Source: a virus
Length of the DNA stretch: 56,090 nucleotides
IMG/VR virus record: IMGVR_UViG_3300037191_001062
Location: 1-56,090 of that record
Direction: 5' to 3' (one strand)
Shown in pieces: positions 536 through 47,864 of the stretch. The position numbers and the translations under genes were made by a program. The notes below the pieces were generated by a model. The model saw nothing but the letters and a program-made list of their open reading frames with translations, ran no database searches and was not told the DNA's origin. Each line of letters opens with the position of its first letter. Within the stretch, counting starts at the first letter, position 1.

Positions 536-1399
536 ATGCAAAAAACATTACCAATTAAAACTATCGTAGCATCTATCATTGGACTACTAATATTTCTTCT
601 ATTGTGGTCAAGCTGGTACACTGTATCTGAAGGACACGTGGGAATCGTTAAACGCTTCTCTGAAGCAAAAAGTCAACAAAACCCAGGTTTGCGATTTAAA
701 ATACCATTCGCAGATACTGTCGAAGAAATTGAAATCCGTACTCGTAAAAACGAAGAAGCAATGACTTCAAGCACTGCAGAACAAATGCCAGTCACAGTGA
801 AGGTGTCTGTTAACTGGACAGTCGACAAAACTGCTGCGCTTGAATTATTTAAACAATACGGCGGCCTTCAACAATTTGAAAATCGAATATTAGATCCACG
901 ATTCCGTTCTGCTACCAAGGATGTTATTCCTAAGTTTACTGCGGAAAAGTTAATACAAGATCGTAGTTCTGCTATTATGTTGATTGAATCATTATTAATT
1001 GAAGAAATGACTCCGTTCCCAGTCAAAGTTGATAACATTCAAATTGAGAATATTACGTTACCACCAAAGTACTTGCAATCAATTGAAACTAAACAGACTG
1101 CTAAAAACTTAGCTGATGCTGAACAATTCAATCTTGATAAGCAAGCACTAGTTGCTCAACAGGGTGTTAACATAGCAAAAGCAAAAGCTGACGGTATTAA
1201 CTTTGTTGCTGAAGCTGAAGCGAACTCAATTCGATTAAAAGGTGAAGCTGAAGCTTCCGCTATTAAAGCAAAAGCTGCTGCACTGAAAAGTAATCCACTT
1301 ATTGTCGACTTAACTGAAGCACAACAATGGAATGGTCAATTGCCATATACCATCCTTGGTGAAGGCGGAATGCCGATATTGGATATGCGCACAAATTAA
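536..1399 (+). CDS. Band-7/SPFH (prohibitin-like) membrane protein
   Basis: A 287-residue protein with an N-terminal membrane anchor (about residues 9-27), then an SPFH/Band-7 domain (TVSEGHVGIVKRF onwards) and an Ala/Glu/Lys-rich coiled coil (about 185-250, with KAKADGINFVAEAEANS and GEAEASAIKAKAAAL). Band-7 proteins form membrane-associated oligomeric scaffolds. They recur in large and marine phages, where their job is not established; protecting the cell envelope or inhibiting host proteases are guesses. An AAAGGAAAAA ribosome site precedes the ATG. A strong terminator follows at 1418. Confidence 0.88.
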   Translation: MQKTLPIKTIVASIIGLLIFLLLWSSWYTVSEGHVGIVKRFSEAKSQQNPGLRFKIPFADTVEEIEIRTRKNEEAMTSSTAEQMPVTVKVSVNWTVDKTAALELFKQYGGLQQFENRILDPRFRSATKDVIPKFTAEKLIQDRSSAIMLIESLLIEEMTPFPVKVDNIQIENITLPPKYLQSIETKQTAKNLADAEQFNLDKQALVAQQGVNIAKAKADGINFVAEAEANSIRLKGEAEASAIKAKAAALKSNPLIVDLTEAQQWNGQLPYTILGEGGMPILDMRTN

Positions 1400-5594: not shown

Positions 5595-6170
5595 ATGACA
5601 CTAAACTTAAGAGAACTGACCAAAGAGAATCATAATAATATAGAAGGCTCAGATTTTGCTGAAATATTATTAGGCGGAAGAATAAATCCACTACTATATT
5701 ACCAGTATCTCTCGGCCCAGTATGAGATTTATGAAGCACTTGAGTCGTTAGTGACAATTCCGTCAAAACTTAAAACTGTTTTTCGAGCTTCTCATATAAT
5801 GCAAGATATGCATGGACTTGAAGATGAGTATGGACTTGAAGAAATAACCGAAAACCTCGAATCAGTTAGTTCATATATTAGTCATATAACCGAGCTTAGC
5901 GCAAAAGGAGAACATGATAAGCTATTAGCTCATCTGTACGTTCGGCATTTTGGTGATTTACATGGTGGTCAAATAATCAAAAAGAGAGTCCCTGGTTCTG
6001 GTACAATGTATGAGTTTACTGGTCGCAAACAGTTGATCACAGATCTTCGTAGTATGTTAAATAATGATATGGCCCCAGAAGCTATTGTCTGTTTTAAGTT
6101 TGCAGAGCTATTATTTTTAGAATTAGTTGATAATTTTGAAGGTGAAGATTTTGAAGTTGATGATCTATAA
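5595..6170 (+). CDS. heme oxygenase
   Basis: A 191-residue all-helical protein matching the HO1 family: LRELTKENHNNIE with likely proximal heme ligand His13, then LYYQYLSAQYEIYEALE, and the distal-helix signature YVRHFGDLHGGQI (about residues 116-127). Heme oxygenase opens heme to biliverdin, releasing CO and iron. Phage versions are known from cyanophages (bilin synthesis) and other marine T4-like phages. There are no bilin reductase genes in this window, so iron release or redox roles are possible. Its stop overlaps the next ATG (TAATG). Confidence 0.85.
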   Translation: MTLNLRELTKENHNNIEGSDFAEILLGGRINPLLYYQYLSAQYEIYEALESLVTIPSKLKTVFRASHIMQDMHGLEDEYGLEEITENLESVSSYISHITELSAKGEHDKLLAHLYVRHFGDLHGGQIIKKRVPGSGTMYEFTGRKQLITDLRSMLNNDMAPEAIVCFKFAELLFLELVDNFEGEDFEVDDL

Positions 6171-7864: not shown

Positions 7865-8785
7865 ATGTCATTTGCATCACTAAAAAAGAACCGTACAAAA
7901 TCCCTCGACAAGCTTAACTCTCAGCTTGAAAAAATCACTAAAAAGTCATATGCTGATCCAGATGCTGATAAGTATTGGAAACCAACTCGCGATAAAGTTG
8001 GTAACGGTTTTTCAATTATCCGTTTCTTACCTGCTGTTGAAGGTGAAGAACTACCATTTGTTCGCACGTTTGACCATGGATTCCAAGGACCAACTGGTTT
8101 ATGGTACATCGAAAGTTCTCTTACAACTTTAAACGTCGACGACCCAGTATCAGAATATAACTCTAAGCTGTGGAATTCTGGTATTGATTCTGACAAAGAA
8201 CTTGCTCGTAAACAGAAACGACGTCTTAAGTATATTTCAAACGTATTAGTTGTTAAAGATCCAGCTAACCCAGAAAATGAGGGCAAAGTATTTCTTTATC
8301 AGTATGGTAAAAAAATCTTTGATAAACTGAATGATTTGATGAACCCATCTTTTGAAGATGAATCACCAGTAAATCCTTTTGATTTTTGGGAAGGTGCTAA
8401 CTTCCGACTAAAAATTCGTTTAGTTGAAGGTTACCCTAATTATGATAAGTCTGAGTTTGACGATCCTACTTCTGTTTTCGACGATGATGATGAAATGGAA
8501 AAATTGTGGAAAACTCAACATTCACTTCAGTCATTGTTAGACCCTAATAAGTTTAAATCTTATGCTGAGTTAAAGACTAAATTGTTCCGTGTACTTGCAC
8601 TTGACGAAGCCGATAATAAAGACTTCGGTAAAACTGCAGAACAAGAACCTGTTGGCGGAAGCGATGAATTAGATTTAAGCGGTATTGCCGATTCAGCTCC
8701 AATTGAAGAATCTAAATCAGCTGGTGAAATGAACTCTGACGACGACGACGACTTGGCAATCTTCAAGGATCTAGCTCGCGGTTAA
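7865..8785 (+). CDS. 32: single-stranded DNA-binding protein (gp32)
   Basis: A 306-residue gp32-type protein. The basic N-terminus has KKNRTKSLDKL, like the LAST motif used for cooperative binding. The core has DKYWKPTRDKVGNG, FVRTFDHGF, DPVSEYNSKLWNSG, RKQKRRLKYISNVLV and VFLYQYGKKIFDK. The C-terminal tail is acidic (SDDDDDLAIFKDLARG) and would contact gp59, UvsX and polymerase. There is no cysteine at all, so the zinc-binding His-Cys3 subdomain of T4 gp32 is missing. AGGAGAA precedes the ATG. Confidence 0.93.
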   Translation: MSFASLKKNRTKSLDKLNSQLEKITKKSYADPDADKYWKPTRDKVGNGFSIIRFLPAVEGEELPFVRTFDHGFQGPTGLWYIESSLTTLNVDDPVSEYNSKLWNSGIDSDKELARKQKRRLKYISNVLVVKDPANPENEGKVFLYQYGKKIFDKLNDLMNPSFEDESPVNPFDFWEGANFRLKIRLVEGYPNYDKSEFDDPTSVFDDDDEMEKLWKTQHSLQSLLDPNKFKSYAELKTKLFRVLALDEADNKDFGKTAEQEPVGGSDELDLSGIADSAPIEESKSAGEMNSDDDDDLAIFKDLARG

Positions 8786-9079: not shown

Positions 9080-9985
9080 ATGAGTCTTTTAGATAAAATG
9101 TTAAAATCCGGTTCAATCAAACAAGCTGGTGTTGTAAATAAATCTGCTTTCTTTGACGAAAAAGAACCAATTCAGACTGAATTACCAATTGTGAATATCG
9201 CTTTTAGTGGTTCACTTAAAGGTGGTTTAATCCCAGGTCTAACTGTTGTCGCTGGTGCATCAAAAAGTTTCAAAACTCTACTATCACTGTATTGTATGAA
9301 AGCATATCTTGAAAAATATAAAGATGGTGTTGCTTTGTTGTATGATTCAGAATTTGGTATTACACCAGATTATTTAGAAAGTTTTGATATTGATACGTCA
9401 CGTGTACTACATATTCCAATCGAAGATGTTGAACAGCTTAAATTTGATATCGTTAAGCGATTAGACCAGATTGATAAGAAAGATCGTGTATTCATCATGA
9501 TCGATTCTATCGGTAACTTAGCTTCTAAGAAAGAAGTTGACGATGCTATGAAAGATAACTCAGCTGCTGATATGACTCGTGCTAAGCAACTTAAATCTTT
9601 ATTTCGCATCATAACTCCAAAGCTAACTACAAGAAACATTCCTTGTTTAGCTGTTAATCATATCTATCAAGAAATTGGTATGTTTCCTAAGAATATTGTA
9701 TCTGGTGGTTGCGTAGTTGAAGGCACAGAAATTCAAACACCAGATGGTCTTAAGAATGTTGAAGACTTCAATGTTGGCGAAAAAGTTATTACTCTAAACG
9801 GTGATAAAGTTGTAAGTCATGTTTGGAACCCTGATACACTTGAAGATGGCAATCCAGAATGTTATGAAGTTGAATTTGAAGATGGATTTAAAGCAACTGT
9901 TTCAGATAAACATAAATTCTTGGTTAACGAAGAATGGGTTGAAGCTAAAGATTTAGTTGTTGGAATGGATTGTACTGTTATTTAG
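9080..9985 (+). CDS. uvsX: UvsX recombinase N-terminal part fused to an N-intein (split intein)
   Basis: Residues 1-210 are the N-extein: UvsX with Walker A GASKSFKT (59-66), the Walker B region VFIMIDSIGN and AVNHIYQ, ending ...IVSGG. Residues 211-301 are an intein N-fragment: it starts with catalytic Cys211 (CVVEGTEIQTPDG, block A), contains a block-B-like TVSDKHKFLV, and ends at a stop codon without any endonuclease domain. The missing half of UvsX follows as a separate ORF at 10039 behind a C-intein, so full-length recombinase needs protein trans-splicing. UvsX coats gp32-bound DNA and drives strand exchange and recombination-dependent replication. Confidence 0.92.
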   Translation: MSLLDKMLKSGSIKQAGVVNKSAFFDEKEPIQTELPIVNIAFSGSLKGGLIPGLTVVAGASKSFKTLLSLYCMKAYLEKYKDGVALLYDSEFGITPDYLESFDIDTSRVLHIPIEDVEQLKFDIVKRLDQIDKKDRVFIMIDSIGNLASKKEVDDAMKDNSAADMTRAKQLKSLFRIITPKLTTRNIPCLAVNHIYQEIGMFPKNIVSGGCVVEGTEIQTPDGLKNVEDFNVGEKVITLNGDKVVSHVWNPDTLEDGNPECYEVEFEDGFKATVSDKHKFLVNEEWVEAKDLVVGMDCTVI

Positions 9986-10038
9986 TGATACAATTGCTCT
10001 AGCTAGAAAGCTATATCTTAATGAAATAAGGAAACAAA
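9986..10038 (+). other. gap between the two split-intein genes
   Basis: These 53 bases separate the N-intein stop from the C-intein start and supply a ribosome site (AAGGAAAC). No endonuclease ORF or promoter is visible. The gap lies where a homing endonuclease domain would sit in a contiguous intein. Confidence 0.8.
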
Positions 10039-10581
10039 ATGAAAATAGTTAACGTTAAACAGGTTGGTAGAAAACCGGTTTATGATTTATCAATAGCAAC
10101 TGAAAATTATGATGAGCAACATTATGTACTCAAAAATGGTATAGTAACACACAATACTGGTATCTATTATTCAGCAAATCAAATCTTTATTATTAGTAAG
10201 TCTCAAGAAAAAGATGGTACTGATTTAGCAGGATTTAAATTTACAATCAATATCGAAAAATCTCGTTTTGTTCGTGAAAAAGCAAAACTACCATTCACTG
10301 TATTGTATGATTCTGGTATTCAAAAGTGGTCAGCATTGTTTGACTTAGCTATTGAATCTGGACATATAGCAAAAGGCGCCACTCAAGGCTGGTATAATGT
10401 TGTTGACCAAGAAACTGGTGAGCTTGTTGAACCTAAGCGTAGACAGAAAGACTTAGGTTCTGATGATAAATTCTTCGAAGCTCTTGTTAAAAACGAAACA
10501 TTTAACAACTTTATCGAACGTAAATATAAATTGACTATACCAGGAAAAATGAAAGATGATGGAAACAACGATACTATCTAA
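10039..10581 (+). CDS. uvsX: C-intein fused to the UvsX C-terminal part (split intein)
   Basis: Residues 1-39 are the intein C-fragment: block F-like PVYDLSIATENYDEQHYVL and block G GIVTHN, ending in Asn39. Residue 40 is the +1 nucleophile, Thr, beginning the C-extein TGIYYSANQIFIISKSQEKD. Joining 210 N-extein and 141 C-extein residues gives a 351-residue UvsX with the GGTG segment restored. Its own start codon and ribosome site show separate translation. Its 3' end overlaps the gp41 start. Confidence 0.92.
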   Translation: MKIVNVKQVGRKPVYDLSIATENYDEQHYVLKNGIVTHNTGIYYSANQIFIISKSQEKDGTDLAGFKFTINIEKSRFVREKAKLPFTVLYDSGIQKWSALFDLAIESGHIAKGATQGWYNVVDQETGELVEPKRRQKDLGSDDKFFEALVKNETFNNFIERKYKLTIPGKMKDDGNNDTI

Positions 10582-11986
10582 TTTAGTCTATAATAACGAA
10601 TACTACGCAAAAGTATATCCTTTTATTAAAGACGAATATTTTGATGATAACACACACCGTAAAATCTTTGATTCTTATCGCGATTATGTTGAACAATATA
10701 AGGCGCCTCCTTCATTGGAGGCTCTGCGAATCTCGATTGATAATCGTAAAGACTTAAACGAAACATCTTATTCTGAAATAATGAGTTCTATCAGTGAATT
10801 GAAAGTTGATAAAGATACAAATACTCAATTTCTATTCGATGAAACTGAAAAGTTTTGCCAGAATAAAGATCTTTATAACTCTATTCGTAAAGCAATTAAT
10901 ATCCTAGATGCTGATGATGAAGGCTCTAAAGATGGTACTGAAGAAGGTAAGGGTTCAATACCAAAACTTTTACAAGACTCACTAGGTATCAGTTTTGACT
11001 CGAGCGTTGGTCATGATTATCTAGAAGAATACGAAGGTCGATACGATTTCTATCATAAGAAAGAAGAACGAGTTCCCTTTGATATTGACTTGCTTAATAC
11101 AATTACCAAAGGTGGTCTACCTCGCAAGTCAATGACAGTATTACTAGCAACTACTGGTGGCGGTAAGTCGTTAATTAAATGTCATATGGCTGCAAACCAT
11201 CTGATGTACGGAAAGGACGTACTGTATATTACAATGGAAATGGCTGAAGAACGTATTGCTGAACGTATTGATGCAAACATGATGGATATCACAATTGACC
11301 AAGTTAAAGAAATTCCACGCGATGTCTATGAAAAACGCTTAAACAGATATAAAAGTAAGACTACTGGTAAATTAATTATCAAAGAATATCCTACTGGTTC
11401 TGCTCACGCCGGTCACTTCAGACATTTACTGAATGAATTGAAAATGAAAAAGAATTTTGCCCCAGATATTATCTTTGTTGATTACTTGAACATATGCTCA
11501 TCATCTCGTGTTCGTGGAGCAGCAGCAGCAAATTCATACACATTAGTCAAGTCAATCGCTGAAGAAATTCGCGGTCTTGCTATGGAATTTAATTGTGCCG
11601 TCGTTACATCTTCTCAGTTTAACAGAGATGGGTATGGAAATTCAGATGTCGATTTAACGAACACTTCTGAGTCTATGGGTATCACTCATACTGCAGATTG
11701 CATACTAGGTCTAATTACATCTGAAGCACTTGATGATTTAGGTCAACTTATGATCAAGCAACTAAAAAATCGTTGGGGCGACTTATCACATTATCGTAAA
11801 TTCTTGGTTGGAATAGACAAATCAAAAATGAAGATTTATAATCTTGAAGAAAGTGCACAACAGAATATCTCTACTGGCGATGCTAACCAACAGAAAGATA
11901 CTGGTCCTGCATTTGATAAAGGTGACTTTGGTTCTAGAATGGGTGGTAATAAACCGGGTCGTTTTAACTCGGGTGGTCTTGTATAA
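10556..11986 (+). CDS. 41: replicative DNA helicase (gp41, DnaB-like)
   Basis: A 476-residue hexameric 5'-3' helicase. The N-terminal domain (about 1-150) is followed by a RecA-like core with Walker A ATTGGGKS (198-205, Lys204), YITMEMAEERIAERI, the Walker B DIIFVDYLNICSS, and SSQFNRDGYGNSD (motif H4). It works with the gp61-type primase at 23527 and is loaded by gp59. A disordered Gly/Asn/Gln-rich tail ends the protein. The start overlaps uvsX by 26 bases. No intein is present here, although gp41 is a known split-intein host elsewhere. Confidence 0.93.
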   Translation: MMETTILSNLVYNNEYYAKVYPFIKDEYFDDNTHRKIFDSYRDYVEQYKAPPSLEALRISIDNRKDLNETSYSEIMSSISELKVDKDTNTQFLFDETEKFCQNKDLYNSIRKAINILDADDEGSKDGTEEGKGSIPKLLQDSLGISFDSSVGHDYLEEYEGRYDFYHKKEERVPFDIDLLNTITKGGLPRKSMTVLLATTGGGKSLIKCHMAANHLMYGKDVLYITMEMAEERIAERIDANMMDITIDQVKEIPRDVYEKRLNRYKSKTTGKLIIKEYPTGSAHAGHFRHLLNELKMKKNFAPDIIFVDYLNICSSSRVRGAAAANSYTLVKSIAEEIRGLAMEFNCAVVTSSQFNRDGYGNSDVDLTNTSESMGITHTADCILGLITSEALDDLGQLMIKQLKNRWGDLSHYRKFLVGIDKSKMKIYNLEESAQQNISTGDANQQKDTGPAFDKGDFGSRMGGNKPGRFNSGGLV

Positions 11987-28327: not shown

Positions 28328-29449
28328 ATGTCTGTATTTAAGAAAAGGGCAGGATCGCACCTCTCATCGAATATTTTTTTCGGTGAGAGGGTAGACATCG
28401 CAAGGTATGACGAAGTAAAATATCCAGCGCTAGAAAAATTAACTAATACAATGCTTGGATTTTTTTGGAGACCTGAAGAAGTTAATATCACAAAAGACAA
28501 GTCTGATTTTGTTAATCTTTCTGATAAAGAAAAACATATATTTACTGCAAATTTAAAAAGACAAATATTATTAGATAGTGTACAAGGTAGAGGTCCAACA
28601 GAAACTTTTATACCTATTGCGTCGTTGCCCGAAATAGAACCACTAGTTCAGACTTGGGCATTTATGGAAACTATTCACTCAAGATCTTATACTCATATTA
28701 TAAGAAACATTTATCCTAATCCAAGTGAAGTGTTCGACACGATGTTGGATATTAGCGAGATATTAGATTGTGGCGATAGTATATCAAAATATTACGATGA
28801 TTTTATTGAAGCAAGTAAATGGTGGCAGTTACTAGGTGAAGGTACTCATATCATTAATGGTAAAGAATTTGTAATTGATTTATACGAATTAAAAAAGAAA
28901 TTGTGGTATGCAATCAATTCAATCAACATATTAGAAGGCGTTCGTTTCTATGTTTCGTTTGCTTGTTCTTGGGCATTTGCTGAAAATAAATTAATGGAAG
29001 GCAACGCAAAGATTATTAAACTAATTGCCAGAGATGAGAATACACATTTAGCAGCATCACAGATGATTATAAAAAATCTTGTAAAAGAAGATCCAGATTT
29101 TGCTAAAATATCTGTAGAATGTCACGACTATATTCAATCAATGTTTATACGAGCTGCTGATCAAGAACGAAATTGGGCTTCATACTTATTCAAAGATGGT
29201 TCGATGTTGGGTTTGAGTGAAAACATTTTGGTGCAATATATTGAATGGATTGTAACGAGACGTATGAGATCTTTAGGTTACACGTCTCCTTATCATGTTC
29301 AACAAACAAATCCGTTACCATGGACTGAAAAATATATTGGTGGTGGTAATGTACAAGTAGCACCACAACAGACACAAATATCTAGTTATGTTATCGGTGG
29401 CGTTAATCAAGATATGACAGCAGAAAAGTTACAGGGATTATCTTTATAA
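28328..29449 (+). CDS. nrdB: class Ia ribonucleotide reductase, small subunit
   Basis: A 373-residue NrdB carrying the diiron-tyrosyl radical. Visible: FFWRPEEVN, the iron-ligand helices with ETIHSRSYTHIIRNIYP and LIARDENTHLAASQ, and a C-terminal tail that binds NrdA. A G-U-containing hairpin (about 28360-28392) lies near the 5' end. The stop overlaps the ATG of the GIY-YIG gene (TAATG), and its GLSL ending is imitated 740 bases downstream. Confidence 0.94.
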   Translation: MSVFKKRAGSHLSSNIFFGERVDIARYDEVKYPALEKLTNTMLGFFWRPEEVNITKDKSDFVNLSDKEKHIFTANLKRQILLDSVQGRGPTETFIPIASLPEIEPLVQTWAFMETIHSRSYTHIIRNIYPNPSEVFDTMLDISEILDCGDSISKYYDDFIEASKWWQLLGEGTHIINGKEFVIDLYELKKKLWYAINSINILEGVRFYVSFACSWAFAENKLMEGNAKIIKLIARDENTHLAASQMIIKNLVKEDPDFAKISVECHDYIQSMFIRAADQERNWASYLFKDGSMLGLSENILVQYIEWIVTRRMRSLGYTSPYHVQQTNPLPWTEKYIGGGNVQVAPQQTQISSYVIGGVNQDMTAEKLQGLSL

Positions 29450-30081
29450 TGTACCGAGTTGGTGACTTTAATGATTACATCGATTTTGCAAAAGCAATTG
29501 GATGCAAAAGAATTGAAGAAATATTAATACAACCAGAAGATGGCGCTGAAGTTTTTCAGTGCCATCACAACGCAAGTTCTAATCCAGTACTGGGTTACTA
29601 TTTTGCTACTGATTCTCACGGTATTAAACATGCGTTTAAACATAGTGTATTGGGGCAAGGTGATATATTAGTTGATGTTACTCCAACTCTAGACAATAGA
29701 AAATATAATATATTTGCTTATGGCTGTATTGACATTGGCGAACACATTACATATTTAAATAACGAAGTCTTTATAAATAAAAATAAACAAGAGACTGAAA
29801 TTATTTACTATGTATATGCATTAATTGATCCAATAACTAAAGAACCTTTCTATATTGGAAAGGGTGAAGATGACAGGGCTCTTTCTCATTTTAAAGAAAC
29901 AGCTTTAGAAAAAGAAGGCAATAATAGAAAGACAGCTAAAATTAAAAAACTAAAATCGTTAGGATATGAACCAATGATTGAATTTTACGCACAAAACATT
30001 ATTGATGAAGATCTTGCATATTATATACAAGAAAAAATTGTAGAAAAACACAAATTGCAATTAGAATCCGGTGTGTATTGA
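29449..30081 (+). CDS. papain-like domain fused to GIY-YIG endonuclease
   Basis: A 210-residue two-domain protein inserted between nrdB and the glutaredoxin gene. Residues 1-105: FQCHHNASSNPVLGYYF, KHSVLGQG and LVDVTPT suggest a papain/transglutaminase-like fold with Cys38, His65 and Asp76. Residues 116-210: IIYYVYALIDPITKEPFYIG is the GIY-YIG core, followed by KGEDDRALSH and a Glu-containing QEKIVEKH helix. GIY-YIG enzymes of this kind are often homing endonucleases. The fusion is unusual; the N-terminal assignment is my inference from motif spacing. Confidence 0.78.
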   Translation: MYRVGDFNDYIDFAKAIGCKRIEEILIQPEDGAEVFQCHHNASSNPVLGYYFATDSHGIKHAFKHSVLGQGDILVDVTPTLDNRKYNIFAYGCIDIGEHITYLNNEVFINKNKQETEIIYYVYALIDPITKEPFYIGKGEDDRALSHFKETALEKEGNNRKTAKIKKLKSLGYEPMIEFYAQNIIDEDLAYYIQEKIVEKHKLQLESGVY

Positions 30082-46724: not shown

Positions 46725-47864
46725 ATGGATTTAAGAATAGCTGAAATCTTAATAAAAGAGTGTAATCGACAAGACAAAACTCTTGAATTAATCGCCAGTG
46801 AAAATTTTGCAAGTGAATCTGTAATGACGCTGTGCGGCAGCGAGTTTACAAATAAGTATGCCGAAGGTTACCCAGGAAAACGCTATTACAACGGCTGTGA
46901 TTATGCTGATTCTATTGAGCAATTAGCAATTGATACTGTTACTAAATTGTTTAAATGTAATTATGCAAACGTCCAACCGCATAGTGGTGCAAATGCAAAC
47001 CTTGCAGTATTTAAAGCCTTTCTAAAACCAGGAGATAGAATCTTGGGTATGGACTTAGCCAGCGGTGGACATTTGAGTCATGGTGCTGGGGTTAACATAT
47101 CTGGTGCTTGGTTTAATGCCGAGTCTTACGGTGTCGATAAAAATGGTCTATTAGATTATGGAGAAGTATTAGAGAAAGCTGAATTATATAGACCTAAAAT
47201 AATTATTGCAGGTGGCTCTGCGTATCCAAGACAAATTGATTGGAAAAAGTTTAGAGAAATCGCAGATTCAGTTGGTGCAATCTTATTAGTCGATATGGCA
47301 CATTATGCAGGTTTGATTGCAGGTGGAGCATATGATAGCCCATTACGGTATGCCGACGTAGTAACGAGCACAACACACAAAACACTTCGAGGTCCAAGAG
47401 GTGGTATTATACTATGGAATAATAAAGATTATTCGCGCAAGATTAACAGTGCGATATTCCCTGGTACCCAAGGTGGACCATTGATGCACATCATAGCTGC
47501 GAAGGCTCAATGTTTTGTTGAAGCAAGTGAAGATTCGTTCGGAGAGTATACAAAGTCTGTAGTTGAAAACGCAAAAACAATGTGTCAAGTATTTAACGAA
47601 CACGGATATAATGTTCAGACAAACGGCACCGACAGTCATATAATTTTACTTAATCTTTCCGGTCACAAACACAGTGGTCGCGAAGCAGCAGATTTATTAG
47701 AAAAAAATGGAATTACAGTGAATAAAAATGGTGTACCAAACGACGATAGATCCTTTGCTGAGACAAGTGGAATAAGAATTGGAACTGCTGCAGAAACAAC
47801 ACGTGGCCACAACACAGAATCGTTCAAAAAAATTGCGAAACAAATCGTAAAGATTCTAAGCTAA
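46725..47864 (+). CDS. glyA: serine hydroxymethyltransferase
   Basis: A 379-residue SHMT, PLP-dependent, converting serine and tetrahydrofolate to glycine and 5,10-methylene-tetrahydrofolate. Visible: LIASENFASESVM, YAEGYPGKRYYNG, ANVQPHSGANANLAVF, VDMAHYAGLIAGG, and TSTTHKTLRGPRGG with PLP Lys219. The C-terminus is shorter than E. coli GlyA (417 residues). Its product is the cofactor of the thymidylate synthase at 25139. It has AAGGAAAC before the ATG. Confidence 0.94.
   Translation: MDLRIAEILIKECNRQDKTLELIASENFASESVMTLCGSEFTNKYAEGYPGKRYYNGCDYADSIEQLAIDTVTKLFKCNYANVQPHSGANANLAVFKAFLKPGDRILGMDLASGGHLSHGAGVNISGAWFNAESYGVDKNGLLDYGEVLEKAELYRPKIIIAGGSAYPRQIDWKKFREIADSVGAILLVDMAHYAGLIAGGAYDSPLRYADVVTSTTHKTLRGPRGGIILWNNKDYSRKINSAIFPGTQGGPLMHIIAAKAQCFVEASEDSFGEYTKSVVENAKTMCQVFNEHGYNVQTNGTDSHIILLNLSGHKHSGREAADLLEKNGITVNKNGVPNDDRSFAETSGIRIGTAAETTRGHNTESFKKIAKQIVKILS

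What the first reader, a model, noticed from the sequence alone, without database searches (positions are those of the whole stretch)
9080..10581. UvsX recombinase encoded in two pieces by a naturally split intein
The first ORF ends in UvsX residues ...SGG followed by a 91-residue N-intein starting at Cys; the second starts with a 39-residue C-intein ending VTHN and continues at Thr with TGIYYSAN of UvsX. The halves are separate genes with a 53-base gap and a ribosome site, so UvsX needs trans-splicing. The junction is the conserved GG-TG segment near the DNA-binding loop, a functional hot spot. Split inteins are known in other phage-like genes (gp41, NrdJ, IMPDH), but I cannot name one in UvsX; the +1 residue Thr is less common than Ser.
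Basis: partly seen in the sequence, partly recalled or inferred. Interest (0 to 1): 0.92.

Follow-up and report, generated by a model that had tools for sequence, protein, structure and literature searches.

The report
Phage UvsX split by trans-splicing intein
A T4-like phage makes its recombination protein UvsX as two separate pieces that carry halves of a self-cutting protein linker (a split intein) to join them; many relatives have the same arrangement with a mobile DNA-cutting gene between the pieces, and this phage keeps only the scar of that gene.

Summary
ORF 9080-9985 is UvsX residues 1-210 plus a 91-aa N-intein. ORF 10039-10581 is a 39-aa C-intein ending THN plus UvsX from Thr211. The 53-bp gap puts the two ORFs in different frames. 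Predicted spliced UvsX is 351 aa. Inteinless relatives join exactly at GG|TG, so the intein edges are exact.

The same split uvsX occurs in about 19 cultured T4-like phages (HY03, PM2, TG1, Thanatos-1 and others) and among 230 IMG/VR hits, mostly with a homing endonuclease (HNH, GIY-YIG, a few Vsr-like) between the halves. That is the 'fractured gene' arrangement named by Dassa et al. 2009. I found no paper that names UvsX.

New here is the stage of the cycle. The 53-bp gap is 85% identical to the last 53 bp of the endonuclease-bearing gap of the nearest relative (L008), so it is a deletion scar. One intein site shows empty, cis, split+endonuclease, decayed and bare-split states. Both halves are under purifying selection, and the fused homologue models as a gp41-1-like intein. 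Trans-splicing is very likely but was not shown here.

The parts
9080..9709 (+). UvsX N-extein, residues 1-210, ending SGG
   Evidence: up to 77-84% identical to contiguous inteinless UvsX
9710..9985 (+). N-intein, 91 aa, Cys1, block-B-like SDKH, with TAG stop at 9983-9985
9986..10038 (+). 53-bp gap: scar of a deleted homing endonuclease gene
   Evidence: 45/53 identical to the last 53 bp of the 895-bp endonuclease-bearing gap of L008; local score 37 versus a maximum of 18 in 1000 shuffles
9986..9994 (+). extended -10-like TGATACAAT; relic of the promoter that in L008 reads TTGACA-N17-TATAAT (the -35 is lost here)
   Evidence: sequence; activity inferred only
10028..10032 (+). Shine-Dalgarno AAGGA of the C-half gene
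   Evidence: sequence; identical stretch ATAAGGAAACAAAATG in L008
10039..10155 (+). C-intein, 39 aa, ends THN
   Evidence: TIGR01443, profile match to Mxe GyrA and DnaE C-inteins
10156..10581 (+). UvsX C-extein, 141 aa from Thr(+1), and stop; overlaps the start of the gp41-type helicase gene (10556)
   Evidence: T4_UVSX_C is below Pfam's cut-off but at the right place
10556..11986 (+). gp41-type DnaB helicase gene, intact; T4-like context (gp32 at 7865-8785 upstream)

Best explanation
The two ORFs make UvsX(1-210)-IntN and IntC-UvsX(211-351). The intein halves find each other, fold into one Hint domain and splice class-1 style: Cys1 attacks the Gly-Cys bond, the chain passes to Thr+1, Asn cyclises, and contiguous 351-aa UvsX is released. 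The locus descends from a fractured gene in which a free-standing homing endonuclease, with its own late promoter and with a start region for the C half, sat between the intein halves. In this phage the endonuclease was deleted, leaving 53 bp of its 3' edge with the C-half ribosome site, and the intein stayed split. Sequence, insertion point, conservation and scar are shown. Splicing itself is inferred.
For: Exact extein boundary at the site where many inteinless relatives are contiguous. Cys1 in 64 of 64 distinct loci, a His-Asn end in nearly all, Thr+1 in 62 of 63. AlphaFold model of the natural cis homologue L011 (mean pLDDT 80, pTM 0.69), with gp41-1 intein 6QAZ as best PDB match (TM 0.77, E=1e-9). 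pN/pS 0.08 for IntC against L008, and 0.13 for IntN against L045. Same split in about 19 cultured phages. The natural cis form L011/L012 joins the same halves in one ORF. Gap homology to the end of the L008 gap. Parallel HEG deletions in sister pairs L067/L068, L080/L083, L109/L095 and L097/L013.
Against: I know of no splicing experiment on this intein. The first AlphaFold run without an alignment was poor (pLDDT 35), and the last 10 residues of the good model are below 50. The window is a 56-kb fragment, so a second intact uvsX elsewhere cannot be excluded. In the window the -35 of the presumed C-half promoter is gone, so how the C half is transcribed is open.
Confidence: 0.93

Rival explanations
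1. The intein is dead or unused and the two pieces assemble without splicing into a two-subunit UvsX, as reported for split NrdA of phage Aeh1 and split gp43 of phage 25.
For: Split phage enzymes that work as two chains exist (PMC2988022).
Against: Those cases are described without intein halves; here every splicing residue and both halves are conserved and under purifying selection. The unspliced pieces would carry a Hint half beside a DNA-contact loop.
Confidence: 0.04
2. Assembly or sequencing error: a normal cis intein broken by a false stop and frameshift.
For: A cis form exists in L011/L012.
Against: The break is a stop, 53 bp of homologous intergenic sequence and a conserved ribosome site. 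L007, with another sample number, is identical. The nearest relative L008 and nearly all others are also split.
Confidence: 0.01
3. A decaying pseudogene of uvsX, with an intact copy elsewhere in the phage.
For: The window is only a fragment, smaller than T4-like genomes.
Against: Low pN/pS in all four segments, and intact helicase and gp32 neighbours in T4-like order.
Confidence: 0.02

Closest known systems
Split uvsX of cultured T4-like phages (HY03, ELT1, PM2, Pm5461, TG1, PspYZU05, Thanatos-1, VmeM-32, EniLVp02)
   Same: Same host gene, same insertion point, homologous IntN and IntC, same gene order before gp41 in most
   Different: Those examined have 501-1066 bp between the halves, with a GIY-YIG homing endonuclease or a truncated one (VmeM-32); the window has 53 bp and none. 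Records call the halves recombination protein, recombinase or DNA repair protein; one notes a HintC domain
Fractured genes with split inteins (Dassa et al. 2009; AceL NrdHF described in PMC7891396)
   Same: Conserved enzyme broken in two by a split intein at the usual breakpoint, with a free-standing homing endonuclease between in relatives
   Different: Window lacks the endonuclease. I could not read the 2009 paper (not held), so whether UvsX is among its enzyme types is unchecked
gp41-1 intein (PDB 6QAZ, 6RIZ)
   Same: Closest solved intein by sequence and fold
   Different: Sits in the gp41 helicase; 27% identity in the Foldseek alignment; its native junction is SSS (PMC7090010), Thr here
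Mycobacterial RecA inteins
   Same: Inteins in the same recombinase superfamily
   Different: Cis inteins; only weak similarity in the splicing domain (3IFJ, 23% identity)

Membership tests
Class 1 intein | Nucleophile at position 1, His-Asn at the end, Cys/Ser/Thr at +1 | tested here: met
   C1, H38-N39 of IntC, Thr+1 in the window; tally over 64 distinct loci
Class 1 intein | Hint fold | tested here: met
   Model of the fused homologue L011, not of the window halves themselves; best match 6QAZ, TM 0.77
Class 1 intein | Excises itself and ligates exteins | not testable with these tools
   Needs expression
[quoted passage not shown]
Fractured gene (Dassa arrangement) | Free-standing endonuclease gene between the halves | tested here: not met
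   Window gap is 53 bp without an ORF; met in L008 and most relatives. The window is derived from such a locus, by the scar
UvsX recombinase | Homology to T4 UvsX across both halves; place between gp32 and gp41 type genes | tested here: met
   3IO5 E=4e-61 and 1e-26; phrog_97 and phrog_8337

The most novel reading that the evidence does not exclude
The split is kept after endonuclease loss because it is useful: active UvsX then needs two separately made polypeptides, so the amount and timing of the recombinase is set by the scarcer half.
Probability: 0.08. Interest if true: 0.75.

Novelty: new member of a known kind. Interest (0 to 1): 0.5.

Why it matters
How split inteins arise and why they persist is an open question. 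Here one intein site in one gene shows empty, cis, split with three endonuclease classes, decayed and bare-split states, with near-identical sister pairs before and after endonuclease loss. Several carriers are cultured phages, at least one listed on E. coli K-12 MG1655 (ELT1), so splicing, homing and the cost of the split can be tested. The pieces may also add a Thr+1 split intein to protein-ligation tools.

Tried and rejected
AlphaFold of the cis homologue without an alignment gave a useless model. Aligning N and C halves together misplaced the C halves, so the final model used N-half rows plus the fused sequence. RNA folding of the gap is not special (z=0.99). The local sigma-70 scan finds no promoter in the gap and fewer hits than shuffles in the region. 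I tested whether endonuclease type travels with the N-intein: no effect (58.9 versus 59.5% identity). The genome scan found one related split locus, in an Anaerolineae MAG, and three weak hits. My regex typing of endonucleases misplaces at least one (L073 is HNH by sequence), so type counts are approximate.

Full report
WHAT IS THERE. ORF 9080-9985 encodes 210 residues of UvsX ending in SGG, then 91 residues starting CVVEGTEIQTPDG. ORF 10039-10581 encodes 39 residues ending VTHN, then 141 residues of UvsX starting TGIYYSAN. The gap is 53 bp, the ORFs are in different frames, and an AAGGA ribosome site precedes the second ATG. T4 UvsX (PDB 3IO5) matches the first ORF at E=4e-61 and the second at 1e-26. 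The N-intein part matches gp41-1 inteins (profile). The C-intein part is above the cut-off of TIGR01443 and matches GyrA and DnaE C-inteins by profile. The neighbours are gp32 and gp41-type helicase, as in T4-like phages.

EXACT BOUNDARY. In inteinless IMG/VR relatives, most of them 74-84% identical in the N-extein (L014, L016-L019, L131-L200), residues 210 and 211 abut with nothing between. The intein therefore sits precisely between GG and TG. The two glycines correspond to RecA G211 and G212, DNA-contact residues reported as the only ones of their set fully conserved out to distant homologues including UvsX (PMC2663765).

NOT ALONE. tblastn in phage records finds both halves, including the C-intein, in about 19 cultured T4-like phages infecting Escherichia, Salmonella, Shigella, Klebsiella, Enterobacter, Proteus, Yersinia, Pseudomonas, Shewanella and Vibrio. 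In the five I read, HY03, Thanatos-1, EniLVp02 and Pm5461 have a homing endonuclease gene between the halves, and VmeM-32 a short ORF annotated as similar to homing endonucleases. An IMG/VR scan with the N-intein alignment gave 230 confirmed hits, of which the best 80 were kept, and all of those are in uvsX. The genome scan added one split uvsX locus in an Anaerolineae MAG (L201) and three weak hits outside uvsX.

ONE SITE, EVERY STAGE. Across the loci I see an empty site. L011/L012 carry a cis mini-intein in one ORF (DVNQIENRI-MKIAKI). Split loci have about 0.65-1.4 kb and an endonuclease of HNH, GIY-YIG or, in three loci, weakly DUF559/MTES_1575-like (Vsr-like) type. Others have shortened or decayed endonuclease regions (L003, L022, L023, L064, L067, L080), and some are bare or nearly bare splits (window 53 bp; L059, L090, L097, L109, L114 at 107-142 bp). 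On a tree of the exteins (quick method), endonuclease state changes at least 14 times. HEG-free loci sit beside HEG-bearing sisters: L067/L068 differ by a clean 677-bp internal deletion, and L080/L083 by loss of the first part of the gap.

THE WINDOW IS AFTER ENDONUCLEASE LOSS. Its nearest relative, L008, has exteins 90% and 85% identical, a C-intein 90% identical, and an 895-bp gap with a 229-aa GIY-type (by motif) endonuclease-like ORF. The window's whole gap aligns without indels to the last 53 bp of that gap, 45 of 53 identical, score 37 against a maximum of 18 in 1000 shuffles. The N-inteins of the two are only 56-59% identical, while the window's is 81% identical to L045 and 77% to L011, whose N-exteins are 78% and 54% identical to it. 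Parts of the intein therefore have different histories from the gene around them, as expected of a homing element.

CONTROL ELEMENTS. The T4 late-promoter motif TATAAATA (identified as such from general knowledge of T4) lies in the first 80 bp of 36 of 56 long gaps, against 1.8 expected from shuffles (maximum 6), and nowhere else in them. Strong sigma-70 promoters lie in the last 120 bp of 12 of 56 against 1.5 expected. The rows are related, so these are not independent counts. In L008 the latter is a perfect TTGACA-N17-TATAAT. The window uses the same promoter style widely (12 forward matches to TTGACATTT-N14..16-TATAAT, none in the control). In its gap only an extended -10-like TGATACAAT is left, with no -35. 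Likely, but unproven: the endonuclease is made late, the C half early, and in the window the C half depends on read-through and its own ribosome site.

FUNCTION. All 64 distinct loci start with Cys, nearly all end His-Asn, and +1 is Thr in 62 of 63. pN/pS is 0.08 for IntC against L008 and 0.13 for IntN against L045, as low as the exteins. The natural cis homologue models well as a Hint fold (pLDDT 80, pTM 0.69), and its best PDB match is the gp41-1 intein (TM 0.77). Trans-splicing to a 351-aa UvsX is the simplest account. It remains inferred, since no tool here can show it.

NOVELTY. The kind of system is known: fractured genes with split inteins (Dassa et al. 2009, cited in PMC7090010 and PMC10448857; AceL NrdHF in PMC7891396). 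No open paper in the library holds both 'split intein' and 'UvsX', and the nine with 'uvsX' and 'intein' look unrelated by title; the three I opened (PMC2988022, PMC2663765, PMC2530865) do not describe it in the passages found. The 2009 paper itself is not held, and its abstract, which I recall as naming eight enzyme types, may include UvsX. I therefore call it a new member of a known kind; the useful part is the scar and the full series of states at one site.

Noticed in passing
window 2027, 3122, 3546, 5188, 6856, 23385, 31785, 32956, 49374, 51090, 52675, 53336 and variants: A repeated strong promoter TTGACATTT-N14..16-TATAAT, often followed by AGTTACATAAATTGATAAAGGA and a start codon: about 14-16 near-identical intergenic early promoter cassettes.
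   Followed up: partly
window 46725-47864: Phage-borne serine hydroxymethyltransferase (Pfam SHMT, E=2e-148); possible host-derived metabolic gene.
   Followed up: no
window 5595-6170: Heme oxygenase gene (Pfam E=1e-20).
   Followed up: no
window 536-1399: SPFH/Band 7 (stomatin-like) protein in a phage (Pfam E=3e-32).
   Followed up: no
window 29449-30081: Protein with a C-terminal LEM-3-like GIY-YIG domain directly after nrdB; a possible free-standing nuclease elsewhere in the same phage.
   Followed up: no
L052 gap, L100 gap, L201 gap: A third, weakly DUF559/MTES_1575-like (Vsr-like) nuclease class occupies the same gap in the split uvsX of these loci.
   Followed up: partly
window 9752-9982 versus L008 6670-6900: N-intein differs sharply (56-59% aa) between otherwise 85-90% identical uvsX genes, from about residue 15 of the intein on: a recombination patch inside the split intein.
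   Followed up: partly
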